Shown here in pieces: positions 6,001-42,904 of a DNA stretch of 64,000 bases; the first letter of the stretch is position 1, and the number at the start of each line of letters is the position of its first letter. The position numbers and the translations under genes were made by a program. Under the pieces are notes generated by a model, which was not told the DNA's origin, ran no database searches, and saw only the letters and a list, made by a program, of their open reading frames with translations. The stretch spans positions 14,286,988 through 14,350,987 of the forward strand of contig VZDJ01000623.1 of assembly GCA_008694505.1 (NCBI GenBank). The letters run 5' to 3'. This stretch comes from Cyanoderma ruficeps. Taxonomy: Eukaryota > Chordata > Aves > Passeriformes > Timaliidae.

Positions 6001-8857
6001 GGAAGAATTAAAATTGTCTGCTAATAATTGTACCCTTCATGTTTTTTGAGCAAGAAGCCTTCTGAAAATAATTAGAGACAGTCTGAGATTTCACTGCTAT
6101 TAATTTTGAACTCCGTTTTTATCTAAAACTTTTTATCCAAAACTGCTGGGTTCTAGTATAAATTTAACTTGTCTGTTCACTAAAGATGTCTGATTTAGCA
6201 CCCAATAATTTTACTGCCTATTATGTAAGCAAATGATACCTGTTAGTGATAATCACATTCATCACATTAGATACTACTAATCATAGAACCCTTTAAAACT
6301 TAGGTGCAGGTGATCATCAATATTTTGTTCAAACATGCAATGATCAGTAGTTTTAAAGTTATCTAAAATAAGGCAATTTTTTCCCAGGCCATATAATCAT
6401 TATGACATGAAAAATCCAATGTTGCAGCAATAAACTATTAATGATAATCATGGTGCGTTATAGAAACATGTTATAAATCGGGCTGCAGCTTTGGAAGTTT
6501 GGAGCTCATTTTTCCTTTGTGAAACACTGTATTCTACTGACAATATCTGGATATATTGCAAAAATGTCATTTCTTGAGTGTTCTCATTTGATGGTAGAAG
6601 ATGCAGAAGTATTGATTCAGCAATATCCTTACAGTTTTCTCACTCTCCTCAAACAGCCATGACCTGGAATCATCCTGGAGGTGACAATGGCTGTCTGGAA
6701 AGAGATGACAGACCTTTCACTACACTCCAGCTACTTTACTACCTATGAAGAGTGATACTATTAAAGTGACTTTTTTCCCTCTGGTTCTTGTAGATAGTGA
6801 AAGGGGTTAATGTCATTTTGTGCTGCTTTGTGTGACTCTGTGTCTGTGCTCGGTCAGGGGCAATAAAAAGGCAAGGCAGAAACATATGAGGAGATGTGCA
6901 GTCCCTTCAGGCCAAGCAGGGGTTCTGCTCTTTATTCCAAATAGTATTTTTATTTTCATTCAGTCAAAATATGAAGTGCCTACAAATTTAGCTGGACTTA
7001 TCACCTGTTAGATGAGAGGTTTTCTCCACAAAAATATTTAAAAAGAACTCCAGACTTTTTATCTGCTGGTGCTTTGGACTAAGATTCTTATTTGAGTGGC
7101 TATACTGACCAAGACGCCCGTTTTTCCTTTTGTGTTTGTTTTGTTGTTGGGGGTGTGATGGGGAAGGGAGGTGATTTGTTTTGTTTTATTTTTTATTATT
7201 TGTCTGCTCTGTGGAAAAGTTCCATTCAGTAACCTCAAAATAATAAAAACTCTAGGTTGTTTCATGTGACACTACTATCAGATTATTAAGTAATAAATAA
7301 CAACTATTGTAGAATTTGTTCAGGAAAGAGTCTAGCAAATTGTGTCCTATGGGAAGAATGGAATTTATCTCTTTCTATTGCTTCTTTTCATCCTATAGAA
7401 CCGGTATATGAGCTCTCTTTTATTTTCCAAAATAATTGTTTCTAAAAAATATTTCTAATAAATTGTATGGGTTTTAGTATTAGCCAGGAACTTTACTAAT
7501 CATCTTAGCATGAGTTGAGTGATAAATTTTCCTGAAAAAAATTCAAGTAACAAGTTATTTCTTTGTAATGAAGTAAACCAGAATCTAAAGAAACATAAAT
7601 TATTACTCTCATTTATCCAGGTATTTGGACTATGTATTACTAGTAAATTCAATTTTTTTGGAAATAAAAAGTTCCAGACGGCTACAAAGTACACATAGTG
7701 CTCCCAAATCTGATAATCTACAGTAACTCCTACAAATATATCATAAAGCATTTGAGGTTGAGCCTTGGTGCAGTCATGGTAAAATGGAATTGTTAAAACA
7801 TCTGCAACTATGTGGGAACTGATAAGTGGAATTTATACTTGAGAATGTAATAGGAGTTGACACCTCTTTGTGACGTGACTGTATCATAGATTGCCTGCGG
7901 CCTGATAGCATCACTATTTCTTGCGGGCAGAGATGTATTTGCTGAAGGTGAAAATGTCATTTAAACAGTTGATACCTTTCAAATAGTATAAACTTAATGC
8001 CTTGTACAGTTCTTGCCTTTTCAGAACAAATATACACAACTTGAAATTCTGGAGAAAGAAATAATGCATCCGTGATTATTAAGTCAAGCCAGAATATACA
8101 TTTGCAACAACACACACTATCTGTAGAGGAATTGGATTTGTTGTGGCAAAGATTAATAATCAGATATTCCTGTGAGTCTGGGAATAACGATTTGACATAA
8201 TGGATACCTGTTTATTTTATTTATCTTGCAAATAAAAGCCACGGAACTGTTTTAAAAACCCCTTTATATTTAGAGAGGACCTAACAAAATCAAAACCTCC
8301 TTTACAACACAGCTTGCTCCCATATAAGAGGTAAAGAAGTAAATGGTCACAGCTGACACTGAAAAGGAAGTCTGAGCATAAGTCAAGAGGAATATATTCA
8401 GACATAAACTCAAAAGTTATTTTTATTTATATGAGAAATTATATTTAAGAGTGCATACATTGACTTCCATTTGGTGACATGATCAAAGATTAAAATGAGG
8501 TGTTTGTTCCCTGCCATATTTCCAGCTTCCAGGCTCGCCGCTATGTCGTCACGTCAGCAGTTTGTTACCAGAACAGCATCTCGCATTCACGATGTGCCAA
8601 ATGAACCAATCAAAGCTTCTGTTGTCTCCTTTTGGCTTTTTCTGAAATTTCCTTCTTTTCACTCTGACATTGTTTCTCTACACTCTGTCCAACAGCCCTT
8701 GCTTCATCACACTCCGCTTCTCGGCCTTCCCTTTGTTTGCATCTTTGCTTCCTTCATGGTAATGCCAATGGCAGAGCACTGCCAAGACAAGACAGGTGAT
8801 GCTCCTGAAGGGACAGGGAGCCAGGAGCTAATGGTGGGACCGGGCCGGCCAGCTCGG
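1..8857. other. AT-rich non-coding stretch, presumed ME3 intron
   Basis: No coding exon, RNA gene or recognisable transposable element could be supported here. Open frames are all short (at most 127 codons) and resemble no family I know. The DNA is AT-rich with many A/T homopolymers. Malic-enzyme exons that should precede the one at 15433 (for example those carrying the catalytic Tyr and Lys) were looked for by eye and not found, so the stretch is inferred to be intronic. Very diverged repeats could be missed. Confidence 0.5.
2772..2813. repeat. Perfect inverted repeat, 15-bp arms
   Basis: Arms 2772-2786 and 2799-2813 are exact reverse complements around a 12-nt AT-rich loop. The arms are AT-rich (core TCTAAGATAAAG). 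No gene lies next to it, so nothing suggests a terminator role; a chance or microsatellite-derived hairpin is most likely. Confidence 0.7.
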
Positions 8858-9255
8858 AACCGGTCGGAACCGGTCTGAACCGGTCTGAACTGGTTGGAAC
8901 CGGTTGGAACCGGTTGGAACCGGTTGGAACCGGTCGGAACCGGTCTGAACCAGTCGGAACCGGTTTGAACCGGTCTGAACTGGTCGGAATCGGTTTGAAC
9001 CGGTCTGAACCGGTCTGAACTGGTCGGAAACGGTCGGAACCGGTCTGAACTGGTCTGAACCAGTTTGAACTGGTCGGAACCGGTCGGAACCGGTCTGAAC
9101 CGGTTGGAACCGGTCTGAACCTGTCTGAACCGGTCTGAACCGGTTTGAACCGGTCGGAACCGGTTTGAACCGGTCTGAACTGGTCGGAACCGGTTTGAAC
9201 CGGTTTGAACTGGTTGGAACCAGTTTGAATCAGTCTGAACCGGTCTGAACCGGTC
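8858..9255. repeat. 10-bp minisatellite, left block (unit GAACCGGTYK)
   Basis: Forty units follow each other with an AACCGGT-type core at 8858, 8868 and so on to 9248, every 10 bp without an indel. Variants are mostly substitutions (AACTGGTC, AACCAGTT). About nine units carry the exact palindrome AACCGGTT and many more AACCGGTC. The unit lacks stop codons in several frames, which creates long meaningless open frames coding a 10-residue repeat. The block ends exactly at the TG terminus of an LTR at 9256. The core matches the known consensus of Grainyhead-like factors; binding is only inference. Confidence 0.95.
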
Positions 9256-9976
9256 TGTCATGGGTTGGCACTAGTCAAAAGCCAGTGCACCCATGAGTGT
9301 ATAGTTTTTTAATAAACTACTGTGAGATGTGGTCAGTCAGGAACAGAGCAGAGCAGGCCTGTCACTTGAAATAGGAAACATTTATTAACCTACATAACAA
9401 TAATAATAGACAATACAAAACAACAGACAATAGACACAGGAAGAAAACCCAATCACCCAAAGGCAGGAAAAAAACTCCCCAGAACACTCTTCCTCCTCCC
9501 CCCAATTTCCATCTTTTACATGCTCAACACTTGTCACCAGCACATACTTTCATTTACTTGCTTGAACCTTCCACAACTCTGGGTTCCCAATTCAAGCCAT
9601 TATCCTTTAAAAACACAATCCTCAATCCATCCAGAGAGAGAAAGAGGAGTCTCTCTCACACCACAGACCGCCCCCCACAGGAAACACAGGGCCATCCTCC
9701 CGTGCTCCCACATCACCCATGGCACCACTCGAAGAACTCCACCACGGTGACACCCTCCTTCCATGTCCGGTGCTCTCACCACCGTCCATGGGACAACTAG
9801 ATAGGGCTCTTTTAAGGATGTTTGGCCCAGTACCAAAAACCAGCCATCTCTTCTATTGGGACTAGCAGTCCCCCCCAGATTCACCCCTGGGGCCGAGGGT
9901 CTCAGAAACAAGCCACAAAGTCTTTGGCTTTGAACCAAACAGCATCCACCCAATTCAGTTTCATTTATATTTAGGA
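9256..9976 (-). mobile_element. Truncated ERV LTR (copy A), promoter-upstream half missing
   Basis: This copy aligns closely and in the same direction with 12382-13101 of the full LTR further right. On the - strand it ends in CA at 9256 and carries an AATAAA signal (TTTATT on + at 9381-9386) and a TATA-type box (ATTTATA on + at 9963-9969). Homology stops at about 9976, roughly seven bases beyond the TATA box, where an ambiguous base and the 10-bp minisatellite take over. The roughly 455-bp U3 part seen in the other copy is absent. No coding capacity; the + strand open frames in it are antisense shadows. Confidence 0.85.
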
Positions 9977-9977
9977 N
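9977..9977. other. Ambiguous base N at LTR/minisatellite junction
   Basis: A single N lies exactly where LTR copy A stops and the second minisatellite block starts. It marks unresolved or conflicting assembly evidence at this breakpoint. Confidence 0.9.
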
Positions 9978-10320
9978 GGTTTGAACCGGTCAGAACCGGT
10001 CAGAACCGGTCGGAACCGGTCGGAACCGGTCGGAACCGGATTGAACCGGTCTGAACCGGTTTGAACCGGTTTGAACCGGTCTGAACCGGTCTGAACCGGT
10101 TTGAACCGGTCGGGACCGGTCTGAACCGGTCTTGACCGGTCGGAACCGGTCTGAACCGGTTTGAACCGGTCTGAACCGGTCTGAACCGGTCTGAACCGGT
10201 TTAAACCGGTTGGAACCGGTCTGAACCGGTCTGAACCAGTCTGAACCAGTTGGAACCGGTCTGAACCGGTCGGAACCGGTTGGAGCGAAAACCCGGACCG
10301 GATTGTTCCTGGTGACCGGA
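9978..10320. repeat. 10-bp minisatellite, right block
   Basis: Thirty units with the core AACCGGT (or one-base variants) sit at 9984, 9994 and so on to 10274, again in unbroken 10-bp register. The repeat then decays over 10281-10320. It is the same unit and orientation as the block left of the LTR, so the LTR fragment is embedded in one array. About seven units hold exact AACCGGTT. The apparent 123-133-codon frames across it are repeat artefacts. Confidence 0.95.
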
Positions 10321-10341
10321 CTGGAGTATTGTAGCACCCTA

Positions 10342-11012
10342 ATTTGTATACTACGTGGCACGTAATTTGCATATTATACTACGCAACGTGTAATTTGCAT
10401 AATGTGCGGCGAGTAATTTGCATATTATACTACGCGGTACGTAATTTGCATATTATACTACACTGCGTGTAATTTGCATAATATGCATTGCTTGATTTGC
10501 ATACCACACACTGCGTAATTTGCATGATACACATTGCACGCCACGCCGTATGCAAATTACACAATGTGTAGTATGCCCATTATGCACTGCATAGTAAGAT
10601 ATGCAAATTACCAGCCACATGTTACGCAAATCACGTGTATTATATTATGTTGCGCGTAATTTGCATAATATGTGGTGCGTCTTTTGCATATTATACTACG
10701 CAGTGCGTAATTTGCATAATGCACATTGCGTAATTTGCATACTACGCGCTGCGAAATTTGCATAATACACATTACACGCCACATAGTTTGCAAATTGCAC
10801 AATGCGTAGCATGCAAATTACGCACCGCGTAGCAAGAGATGCAAATTACGTGCCGTGTGGTATGCAAATCACGTGTATTATACTACACGGCGTGTAATTA
10901 GCATAATACGTGGTGCGTGGTTTGCACATTATACTACGTGGCGTGTAATTTGCATAATATGCATTGCATAATTTGCATACTGCACGGCACGTAATTTGCA
11001 TAATACGCATTG
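10342..11012. repeat. Compound satellite of octamer motifs with 238-bp higher-order unit
   Basis: Nineteen exact ATTTGCAT/ATGCAAAT octamers occur here. Fourteen are on + (10365, 10393, 10416, 10444, 10472, 10495, 10518, 10659, 10710, 10733, 10756, 10948, 10971, 10994) and five on - (10550, 10601, 10811, 10839, 10862). One-to-two-base variants fill the gaps. Within a block, spacing is always 23 or 28 bp, reflecting two unit types that share the octamer and differ in the linker. Blocks alternate + / - / + / - / +. Ten successive motif positions from 10518 to 10756 recur exactly 238 bp later (10756 to 10994), so there are about 2.5 copies of a 238-bp higher-order repeat. The octamer is the known POU/Oct factor site; function here is not shown. 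Confidence 0.92.
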
Positions 11013-12381: not shown

Positions 12382-13547
12382 TGTCATGGGTTGGCGCCGG
12401 CCAAATGCCAGTGCACCCATGAGTGTATGTTTTTCCCTAATAAACTACTGTGAGATGTGGTCAAGAACAGAGCAGAGCGGGCCTATAACTTGAAATAGGA
12501 AAAAAAAATTTATTAACCTACATAACAACAGACAATACATAACAAAAGACAGTAGACACAAAAAGAAAACCCAATCACCCAAAAGCAGGAAAGAAAACCT
12601 CCCAGAACACTTTTCTTCCTTCCCCCAATTTCCATCTCTTACATGCTCAACAGTTGACACCAGCACATACTTTCATCCACTTGCTTAAACCTTCCACAAC
12701 CCTGGGTTCCCAATCCAAGCCATTATCCCTTAAAAACACAATCCTCAATCCGTCCAGAGAGAGAGAGAGGAGTCTCTCTCGCACCACAGACCCCCCCACA
12801 GGAAACACAGGTCCATCCTCCCGTGTTCTCATGTCACCCCTGGCACCACCCAGAGAATTCTACCAGGGTGACACTCTCCTTTCCATGTCCAGTGCTCTCA
12901 CCACTGTTCATGCACCAAAACTAGATAGGGCTCTTTTAAGGATGTTTGGCCAATACCAAAAACCAGCCATCTTCTCATATTGGGACTAGCAGTCCCCCCC
13001 AAATTTACCCCTGGGACCGAGGGTTCTAAGAACAGGCCACAAAGTCTTTGGCTTTGAACCAAAAACATCCACCCAATACAGTCTTATTTATATTCAGAAG
13101 AGTCAGGGTCTGTCTATGGCTAAATTATGCAAGAGACGTTCAACCCAAAGGCCACTCCTCTTCATCTTTGGCAATCGGGGGAGATTCTTTTCATCTTCCT
13201 TTATCATCTTAGTCCCAGGCTGTCCTCTCTCTTCTGAAACCACAGCCATGAGTAATCAGTGTCTGGAAAGAGTTCTCCTCTGCCTTAGAAAGAGTTAAAA
13301 GCTTCTATTTCCCAGCAAGGCCACAGGCTCAGGCAGGCTCCAGCACGACAGAGACGGGGGACGGAAGACACCTCCGAAGCTCTCCACCCCTCCATCCTGG
13401 ATGGGGCTAACCCAGNTTTAACCCCCTGTGTCCTCAGAGGTGTGTCCAACTTCTCAATGGTCACAGAAGGTGCCAACATCCAAACCTGGCCACTGATTGG
13501 TTTGACCTCAGCTTCCTGAAAAACTCATTTCCCCTCAAACCAGGACA
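12382..13547 (-). mobile_element. Solo ERV LTR (copy B), complete
   Basis: Read on the - strand it begins TGTCCTGG at 13547 and ends CATGACA at 12382, giving TG...CA termini over 1166 bp. A TATA-type box (ATTTATA on + at 13086-13092) lies about 455 bp in, and an AATAAA signal (TTTATT on + at 12509-12514) lies about 575 bp further on, as in a retroviral U3-R-U5. Flanking bases are gagat (12377-12381) and gggat (13548-13552), a 4/5 match consistent with a decayed 5-bp target duplication, so this is likely a solo LTR. It is antisense to ME3. One ambiguous base sits at 13416. Copy A at 9256 is the same family. Confidence 0.85.
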
Positions 13548-14100: not shown

Positions 14101-32533
<18,433 letters not shown>

Positions 32534-40931: not shown

Positions 40932-42560
40932 TGCAGCGTCGCCCCAACCGGAGGAGGAGACTGGCAGTGCACAAGGGCGAATCCTGCGGGGGCCGTGGCC
41001 ACGGTTTCGGGTGCGGGGCTCTCACACGCAGCGGGGTGCGAGAAGCCCCGTGCGGCCTCCGCGCTGCCCCAGCGTCCGCCCGCCGCCGCGGGGGGCTCCG
41101 GGCTCCGCTCCCCGCCTCGCCGTCCCGGCGGGCCCCGAGCCCCGGCCGCCCTACAGCCCGGGGTAGCCCCCGCGGTGGTACCCGCCGCCGTAGTCGTAGG
41201 GCGGCTGCGGCGGGGGCAGCGGGCACTCGGGGAAGAAGGGGGCGAACCCCGCGGGCAGGTGGCCGCCGGGCTCCTCGCTGCCGCCGCCGCCGCCGCCGGG
41301 CACGGGATCCGCGCCGCCGGGGTAGAGCGGGCGCAGCGGCTCGGCCGGCGCCTTCCTGGGCGGGCTGCAGGGCGCGGCCGGGCTCCAGGGCGGCTCGGGG
41401 TACAGCAGCCCGCCCAGCAGCGGGTGCGGGCCGGAGGGCAGCGGCAGCTCGTACAGCCCGTGCTCCAGCCCCAGCTCGGCGGGCAGGCGGCCGCCGAAGG
41501 CGTCGGTCGGGGCGGCGTGCTCGGGCAGCAGCGCGCCGTACTCGGGGCACAGCAGCTCGAAGAACTCGGTGGCCTCCGCGCCCCCGCCCCCGCCGCCCTT
41601 CTCCGGCTCCTTGGCGGGCGGCCCGCGGGCGGCGGGGCCGGGCAGCGCCGGCTCCGTGAAGAAGGAGGGCGGCAGGTTGCGGTCCCGCAGCGGCACCTTC
41701 CGCGGGCCGCCCGCCGCCTTCTCCCCGCCGCCCGCGCCGCCGCCGCCCGCTTTGGCCTCGGCGCCGCCCGCCGCGCCCCGGCCCCGCTGCAGGGAGCCGA
41801 AGAGGGCGGCCAGACTCTTGCTCTGGAGGCTGCTGCCGGCCGCCTGCGCGGGCTCCCGGCGCGGCGGGGGCCGGGCGGGGCAGGCGGAGGGCGGGCAGGC
41901 GGCGGGCGGCGGCGCGGGCGGCGGGGCGGCGGCGGCGATGATGCCGGTGCAGCGCTTGATCTGCTTCTGCAGGTACTTCCTATGGTTCACCTTCCGCCGG
42001 GACTTCACCGGCCGGTCCAGCGCCAGCTTGATGTTGCTGGAAGCCGAGTCGATGAAGCTCAGCAGGTCCCGGGTGGCTTCTCTAAAGTCCCCCGCGTCGC
42101 CGCCGCCGCCCTCGTAGCCCTTCTCCAGGTCGGCATAGCCCAGGAGCCCGCCGGCGGCGGGGAAGCAGAAGGAGAGGAGGTGGGGGCTGAGCAGCGCGGC
42201 GGGCACGGCCATGGCCGGCGGCGAATGCCGCCGCCCCGAGTTCCGACAGACTCCGCTGGGATGCGCCCCGCGGGCGACGGCAGCGGCAGCGGGGAAAAGG
42301 CGGCGGGCGGGGAAGGAGGAGAAGGAGGAGGGATCAGAGCGGGGCTGGCCCCGGCCCTCCCCGCCTCCCTGCCGGGAGCCCGGGGGCCGGGCTGGCTGCA
42401 CCCATCCACCCACCGACCCGGGCGGGAACATCGGCAGCGGCGAGGCGGGACGAGCATCACCCCCAGGAGTTGGACACACCCGCCCCGGGACAGATGCGCG
42501 GCCCCGCGGACAGGTGTACGCCCGCAATCCGGGACAGGTGCACAGGCATTCCCTGACCAA
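40932..42560. promoter_or_regulatory. CpG island covering FAM181B
   Basis: Base composition switches abruptly from AT-rich to extremely GC- and CpG-rich over the whole FAM181B CDS and its upstream flank, then returns to ordinary composition at about 42600. The upstream part (42213-42560) is the likely - strand promoter and 5' UTR. No TATA box is evident, as usual for CpG-island promoters. Confidence 0.75.
41151..42212 (-). CDS. FAM181B: FAM181B, single-exon TEAD-binding family protein
   Basis: 353 codons without intron. The start chosen (CAT at 42210-42212) gives MAVPAALLSPHLLSF, matching the family N-terminus (human MAVQAALLSTHPF); the frame stays open upstream but that part is not conserved. 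Residues 42-92 are the FAM181 core (DFREATRDLLSFIDSASSN, then a basic HRKYLQKQIKRC stretch). Residues 130-141 (SKSLAALFGSLQ) and 173-189 (VPLRDRNLPPSFFTEP) are also conserved. The latter resembles YAP's omega-loop LRKLPDSFF and, from published work on FAM181A/B, is the TEAD contact. Pro-, Ala- and Gly-rich linkers join them, including a GGC-run poly-Gly. The protein ends YHRGGYPGL, shorter than human (426 aa). Its cellular role is poorly known; it is expressed in the developing nervous system. Confidence 0.93.
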   Translation of the reverse strand: MAVPAALLSPHLLSFCFPAAGGLLGYADLEKGYEGGGGDAGDFREATRDLLSFIDSASSNIKLALDRPVKSRRKVNHRKYLQKQIKRCTGIIAAAAPPPAPPPAACPPSACPARPPPRREPAQAAGSSLQSKSLAALFGSLQRGRGAAGGAEAKAGGGGAGGGEKAAGGPRKVPLRDRNLPPSFFTEPALPGPAARGPPAKEPEKGGGGGGAEATEFFELLCPEYGALLPEHAAPTDAFGGRLPAELGLEHGLYELPLPSGPHPLLGGLLYPEPPWSPAAPCSPPRKAPAEPLRPLYPGGADPVPGGGGGGSEEPGGHLPAGFAPFFPECPLPPPQPPYDYGGGYHRGGYPGL

Positions 42561-42904
42561 ACACGGGCAGGCACCCCAGAGCAGATGCATCTTATCCTTC
42601 AGATCCCATCCGTCTTGTCCCTCCTCCTGCAGTTGCTCAGCTGGCAGAAAACATGTTCCTCAGTCTGGAGTCGGGCCCGGCGCTTGCACGGCTCTGGGTG
42701 CAAGGGCACGGGGACGTGCTCTTGCTCTGACAGCCGCCAGGATACACACACTTAAACTGATTTGTAAAGGATGCTTTTTCCCAAGCTCATTGCTATGCAC
42801 GTTACATAGCATATTCTCTGTCAAGTCCTTAGGAAATCCAGAGCTGTGATCCAGTAGAGATTTCAAATGACTGGGGTGCCTGGAGTTAAAGTCACAAAAT
42901 AATG

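What the first reader, a model, noticed from the sequence alone, without database searches (positions are those of the whole stretch)
10342..11012. Octamer (ATTTGCAT) satellite with quantised 23/28-bp spacing and an inverted 238-bp higher-order repeat
Nineteen exact POU/Oct octamers lie in about 640 bp, against an expectation of roughly 0.02 by chance. Spacing within blocks is only 23 or 28 bp, orientation alternates in blocks, and ten consecutive motif positions (10518-10756) recur exactly 238 bp later. The linkers vary much more than the octamer, which could mean that the octamer is maintained, or only that it was the seed of the repeat. If bound, it would be a very dense POU-factor platform in the presumed ME3 intron.
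Basis: partly seen in the sequence, partly recalled or inferred. Interest (0 to 1): 0.75.

Follow-up and report, generated by a model that had tools for sequence, protein, structure and literature searches.

The report
Dispersed satellite carrying octamer motifs
The cluster of a known regulatory motif in this gene intron is real, but it is one small copy of a repeat family found at a dozen or more places in the genome, usually joined to a second repeat, and nothing yet shows that it works as a control element.

Summary
In detail: 19 exact octamers on a 23/28-bp grid, in blocks of alternating strand, with a 238-bp unit repeated about 2.5 times.

It is not private to this intron. The same units occur at 11 other loci in the window's own genome, a lower bound. 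At 10 of the 12 loci the octamer array adjoins a 51-bp satellite in one fixed relative orientation, with recurrent junctions. The alternating strands are private to the window: all 11 other arrays run one way.

Is the octamer maintained? It is the least variable part of 406 units (6% departures v 14% and 23% in non-CpG and CpG linker columns). Much of this is CpG decay and subfamily variants. Transversions are equal within the window, lower in octamers family-wide (2.8 v 4.9%), and not clearly so once common variants are set aside (2.8 v 3.3%). The conserved block, TAATTTGCATA, is longer than the octamer and overlaps the join to the 51-bp satellite.

Best reading: a dispersed mosaic satellite family, its intronic copy in ME3. 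POU binding is untested.

The parts
10342..11012 (.). Octamer array: 26 grid places, 19 exact ATTTGCAT, 23- and 28-bp units in blocks + - + - +
10342..10426 (+). Left part with 23- and 28-bp units, outside the 238-bp repeat
10427..10664 (.). Higher-order unit copy A (238 bp)
10665..10902 (.). Higher-order unit copy B, 189 of 238 bases equal to A
10903..11012 (.). Higher-order unit copy C, first 110 bp
10427..10863 (.). Imperfect inverted repeat, arms 218 nt, 72% complementary, 1-nt gap; strand alternation is private to this locus among the 12 compared
   Evidence: DNA fold of the array -163.7 kcal/mol, z -13.8 against 20 shuffles
10271..10327 (+). Remnant (about one copy) of the 51-bp satellite that adjoins octamer arrays at 9 other loci
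9978..10280 (.). 10-bp minisatellite, about 30 copies; also present between octamer blocks at one other locus (L042)
8857..9257 (.). Second block of the 10-bp minisatellite, about 40 copies
9256..9975 (.). Interspersed element (LTR-like by my reading, no repeat library used), 87% identical to 12386-13097, between the two 10-bp blocks
15422..15544 (+). First malic-enzyme exon found downstream of the array
32366..32530 (+). Last coding segment of ME3

Best explanation
The array is one small member of a dispersed mosaic satellite family. Octamer-bearing 23- and 28-bp monomers are amplified in tandem, are joined again and again to a 51-bp satellite through the shared block TAATTT, and have spread as composites to many chromosomal sites. 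The copy in the ME3 intron then underwent an inverted duplication and a tandem duplication of the resulting 238-bp module. Linkers were CG-rich and lose CpGs; the octamer, without a CpG and part of the block at which monomers join, changes least. Shown: the family, the composite structure, fixed orientation, recurrent junctions, the local inversion and the mutation pattern. Inferred: that the shared block promotes joining, the order of events, germline methylation, and that the ME3 copy has no regulatory role.
For: 60 exact matches of a 31-bp unit pattern, 0 for the reversed control, group into 12 loci on 6 contigs. In the fetched loci the octamer block adjoins 51-bp repeats at 10 of 12 (not L044, L045), in the same relative orientation at 10 of 10 (in the window by the majority strand). 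Of 12 octamer-to-51-bp junctions listed, 10 place ATTT/ATTC of the 51-bp unit where the next ATTTGCAT would begin; of 11 junctions the other way, 7, the window's among them, read GGAGT followed by a TTATA-like stretch, 3 are of a second kind and 1 of a third (my reading). All 11 other arrays have units on one strand only; the window has 20 and 8. CpG O/E is 1.64-2.30 in the 12 octamer blocks and 0.11-0.40 in flanks. In the window's 84 CpG-capable steps, CG 30, TG 28, CA 20, TA 1, other 5; TA expected 7.1, no shuffle of 10,000 as low. Eight-column windows shifted by one are as conserved as the octamer, e.g. 5.9 v 6.0% in the 23A units.
Against: Over 406 units octamers also have fewer transversions: 91/3246 v 218/4449 in non-CpG linkers, ratio 95% interval 0.42-0.76 by locus bootstrap, lower in 10 of 12 loci, higher in 1, which selection or a bound protein would explain. 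Setting aside minor alleles above 10% of a column leaves it (0.43-0.78); above 5% it fades (0.64-1.09; 7 loci lower, 4 higher). These cut-offs are mine, made after seeing the data. Two loci lack the 51-bp satellite. Flanking sequence is shared by some loci (L040/L041/L043, in L041 beyond a gap of N; L046/L047; L046/L048), so part of the spread may be segmental duplication or carriage in a larger element. No role of the shared block in joining was tested.
Confidence: 0.75

Rival explanations
1. Part of a larger transposable element: the arrays are the repetitive core of a mobile element, and its ends define the dispersal.
For: Shared flanks beside the arrays in three groups of loci, at 85-99% identity.
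Against: Edges of the other loci show no common sequence by eye, and the masked flanks of L039, L044, L045 and the window share nothing adjacent to the array with other loci at E 1e-4. No target-site duplication or terminal repeat was looked for systematically.
Confidence: 0.1
2. POU factors or another protein bind the conserved block across the family, opportunistically or as in MORC3-restricted repeats or CENP-B-box satellites, without a selected role at ME3.
For: The octamer, to within one column, is the least variable block in all three unit types. Described MORC3-repressed repeats hold 26-45 motifs of one factor (PMC13373173: abstract, section 13, passages).
Against: No binding data. That paper reports ETS/SPI, AP-1 and SP/KLF clusters and found no general regulatory activity; POU and octamer are not in its main text.
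Confidence: 0.1
3. A selected POU platform that regulates ME3.
For: 19 exact octamers; fewer differences in octamers than linkers between copies A and B (6/70 v 43/168, p=0.003).
Against: Within the window the difference is all transitions: 2/104 v 47/244; transversions 6/104 v 14/244, p=1 (A-B and B-C pooled). 7 of 26 places are degraded. Family copies lie at 11 other loci, so the motif density is not special to ME3.
Confidence: 0.04
4. Assembly artefact.
For: An N at 9977; gaps of 411 and 696 N near L041 and L046.
Against: Copies A and B differ at 49 of 238 sites; 12 loci show the same monomers.
Confidence: 0.01

Closest known systems
Satellite libraries with conserved motifs at monomer junctions (Meloidogyne, PMC3694981, abstract read)
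   Same: Different satellites joined in mosaic arrays, with a short conserved motif at the junctions
   Different: Motif is octamer-like, not CENP-B-box-like; short arrays, one in a gene intron; a role of the motif is not shown here
MORC3-restricted tandem repeats with homotypic motif clusters (PMC13373173; abstract, section 13 and passages read)
   Same: Tandem repeat dense in one factor's motif
   Different: No evidence here of binding, repression or enhancer activity; motif not among those reported
Satellites with macro-dyad symmetry (Tribolium madens, PMC13081366, abstract read)
   Same: Inverted blocks able to form hairpins
   Different: Only the window's 671-bp copy is inverted; 11 other arrays are not

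Membership tests
Satellite DNA | Tandem monomers | tested here: met
   TRF periods 23, 28, 51, 74 and others
Satellite DNA | Many loci in the genome | tested here: met
   12 loci with the 31-bp pattern, a lower bound
Satellite DNA | Long heterochromatic arrays | tested here: not met
   The 12 blocks fetched span about 130 bp to 2.9 kb, other satellites included; longer ones may be missing from the assembly
Transposable element | Common ends | tested here: inconclusive
   Shared flanks in three groups of loci only
Homotypic POU-factor cluster | Motif density beyond chance | tested here: met
Homotypic POU-factor cluster | Motif held by selection | tested here: inconclusive
   Transversions equal in the window, lower family-wide, not clearly so with common variants set aside
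Homotypic POU-factor cluster | Factor occupancy | not testable with these tools
   No ChIP or CUT&RUN data
CpG island | CpG O/E above 0.6 and GC above 50% (criteria recalled) | tested here: not met
   O/E 1.64, GC 39%

The most novel reading that the evidence does not exclude
The block TAATTTGCATA is a protein-binding box of a dispersed vertebrate satellite, an octamer counterpart of the CENP-B box: a POU or related factor binds hundreds of copies, keeps the box from decaying and helps the two satellites join and spread, and the intronic copy brings such a platform into ME3.
Probability: 0.07. Interest if true: 0.75.

Novelty: new member of a known kind. Interest (0 to 1): 0.4.

Why it matters
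It turns an apparent single-gene regulatory platform into a repeat family with a testable rule: two satellites, one orientation, recurrent joins at a conserved block. If that block is bound, it would link a transcription-factor motif to satellite spread. If not, it is a clear case of how CpG decay and subfamily variants make a motif inside a repeat look selected.

Tried and rejected
That was wrong: the genome search then answered and showed the family. Odds and interest were changed for that reason.

Rejected: an array confined to ME3; inverted blocks as a family feature; assembly duplication.

Weak or void tests: the viral-contig patterns match the window's own array 3 and 2 times and found nothing in viral contigs, which says little about a vertebrate repeat. 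The prokaryote-contig pattern was badly built and does not match the window's own array; it tests nothing. Rfam gave no match at gathering scores.

Octamer against linker, against my reading: sites without CG in either copy still differ more in linkers (24/122 v 5/68, A-B); with CpG-capable columns widened, 16/90 v 6/70, p=0.11; the third, non-independent pair A-C has transversions 0/32 v 4/78. Two of the six octamer transversions pooled are adjacent and may be one event. In the window's 26 places, the neighbouring non-CpG columns -2, -1, 9, 11 and 12 depart 22 times in 130, octamer columns 9 in 208 (counted). In the 28-bp units of the window the two are close: 7/84 v 3/56; in its 23-bp units they are not: 26/98 v 5/112, 14 of the 26 in two subtype columns. 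One search left out 5 edge units. The 406-unit parse left out stretches that matched both satellites and two octamer pieces under 45 bp.

A pattern for the 10-bp minisatellite failed and was redone.

Literature (open-licence PMC only): 0 papers; 16 listed, of which 7 titles are on microsatellite or SSR markers and none on an octamer satellite; listings of 15 of 4,077, 2 of 2 (37), 15 of 59 (38), 12 of 130 (39), 4 of 4 (45), 12 of 36 (48) and 10 of 125 (78) showed no octamer array by title and abstract start. PMC3188502 was seen as abstract only. No repeat library (Dfam, Repbase) was available, so the family may already have a name.

Full report
Observation. The array is real. Nineteen exact octamers lie at 10365-11001; 12 close pairs are seen where shuffles give none. 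Of 41 sites with up to two mismatches, 26 form a grid from 10342 to 11001: eight on +, four on -, five on +, four on -, five on +. All 21 within-block intervals are 23 or 28 bp. Lag 238 gives 80.4% identity. Copies A 10427-10664, B 10665-10902 and C 10903-11012 differ at 49 of 238 (A-B), 20 of 110 (B-C) and 19 of 110 sites (A-C). Arms of 218 nt are inverted at 72%.

A family. The window lies at C296:14286988-14350987 of a 1,025,384,561-base assembly in 481 contigs. Octamer pairs 15-20 bp apart occur 233 times on both strands together, the reversed control once; many of the listed pairs have unrelated linkers, and only the first places are listed. A stricter 31-bp pattern of the 23-bp unit has 60 exact matches, control 0, in 12 groups: two on C296 (the window and one 2.1 Mb away), three on C326, one each on C454, C474 and C478, and four on C480. 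I fetched the 11 other loci. This is a lower bound; a DNA search for more did not complete.

Composite structure. The octamer blocks adjoin a 51-bp satellite at 10 of 12 loci; L044 and L045 lack it. In the window it is reduced to about one copy at 10271-10327. The two satellites keep one relative orientation at 10 of 10 loci (in the window by the majority strand). In 10 of 12 octamer-to-51-bp junctions the 51-bp unit begins where the next octamer would; the exceptions are L046:3387-3396 and L048. In the other direction, 7 of 11 junctions are of one kind (L042, L043, three in L046, L047, window), 3 of another (L039, L040, L041) and 1 is different (L049) (classes by my reading). A 10-bp minisatellite adjoins the composite in the window and in L042 only, in opposite relative orientation for most hits.

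What is special to the window. The other 11 arrays have all parsed units on one strand; the window has 20 and 8. So the inverted 238-bp module most likely arose here. Its CpG O/E (1.64) is the lowest of the 12 (1.64-2.30), with L044 at 1.65, which would fit an old copy.

Octamer against linker. In the window, copies A-B and B-C pooled, transitions are 2/104 in octamers and 47/244 in linkers (p=2.8e-6), transversions 6/104 and 14/244 (p=1). Sliding the octamer mask along A-B, 13 of 237 shifts have as few differences, 4 as few transitions and 153 as few transversions. With 406 units from 12 loci, parsed with equal weight on every column, departures are: octamer 107 transitions and 91 transversions in 3246; non-CpG linker 413 and 218 in 4449; CpG linker 489 and 115 in 2590. 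So family-wide the octamer is lower in transversions too, ratio interval 0.42-0.76, 10 of 12 loci lower. Setting aside minor alleles above 10% of a column makes non-CpG transitions about equal (3.7 v 3.3%, ratio interval 0.70-1.11) and leaves the transversion gap (0.43-0.78); above 5% the transversion gap fades (2.8 v 3.3%, 0.64-1.09), while that rule removes most linker transitions and so cannot be used for them (octamer 2.3 v linker 0.7%). My reading: CpG decay and amplified subfamily variants explain most of the contrast, and a modest extra constraint on the block remains possible. The block is not sharply the octamer: windows of eight columns shifted by one have the same rates, and GTAATTTGCAT occurs 15 times in the window array against 19 octamers.

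Setting. tblastn hits of a recalled malic-enzyme sequence lie on + at 15422-15544, 27106-27219, 28395-28511, 29165-29335, 29842-30003, 30869-31066, 31478-31576 and 32366-32530; the last matches mitochondrial NADP-dependent malic enzyme entries best (8eyn_A, E 2.3e-15). No hit lies before 15422, where the query is at residue 221, so the array is most likely in the intron upstream of that exon; short or divergent exons could have been missed.

Known relatives. Satellites of root-knot nematodes are joined in mosaic arrays with short conserved motifs as obligatory parts of monomer junctions (PMC3694981, abstract), which is close to the structure here. Tandem repeats packed with one factor's motifs can be repressed enhancers (PMC13373173), but POU motifs are not mentioned in its main text and it reports no general gene-regulatory activity of such repeats.

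Verdict. A real array, part of a dispersed mosaic satellite family, with one locally inverted copy in an ME3 intron. The regulatory reading is possible but unsupported.

Noticed in passing
8857-9257 and 9978-10280: About 70 copies of a 10-bp minisatellite; of 66 matched units the core reads CCGG 50, CTGG 7, CCAG 5, other 4. Some units resemble the grainyhead consensus (recalled).
   Followed up: partly
9256-9975 and 12382-13097: Two copies, same orientation, of an LTR-like element, 87% identical (60 transitions, 14 transversions in 706 sites); the first lies between the two 10-bp blocks, next to an N at 9977.
   Followed up: partly
L046:1513-2056 and L047:3064-3607: Flanks of two arrays on the same contig, about 95 kb apart and in opposite orientation, 97% identical over 544 bp: a recent inverted duplication or shared element.
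   Followed up: no
L040:1-399 and L040:1496-1893: Inverted repeat of about 400 bp at 98.7% identity left of the octamer array, also found at L041.
   Followed up: no
41151-42659 (-): Long open frame in a GC-rich stretch whose translation looks like FAM181B (recognised from memory, not searched).
   Followed up: no
18300-18418: Two-copy 58-bp tandem repeat, 88% matches.
   Followed up: no
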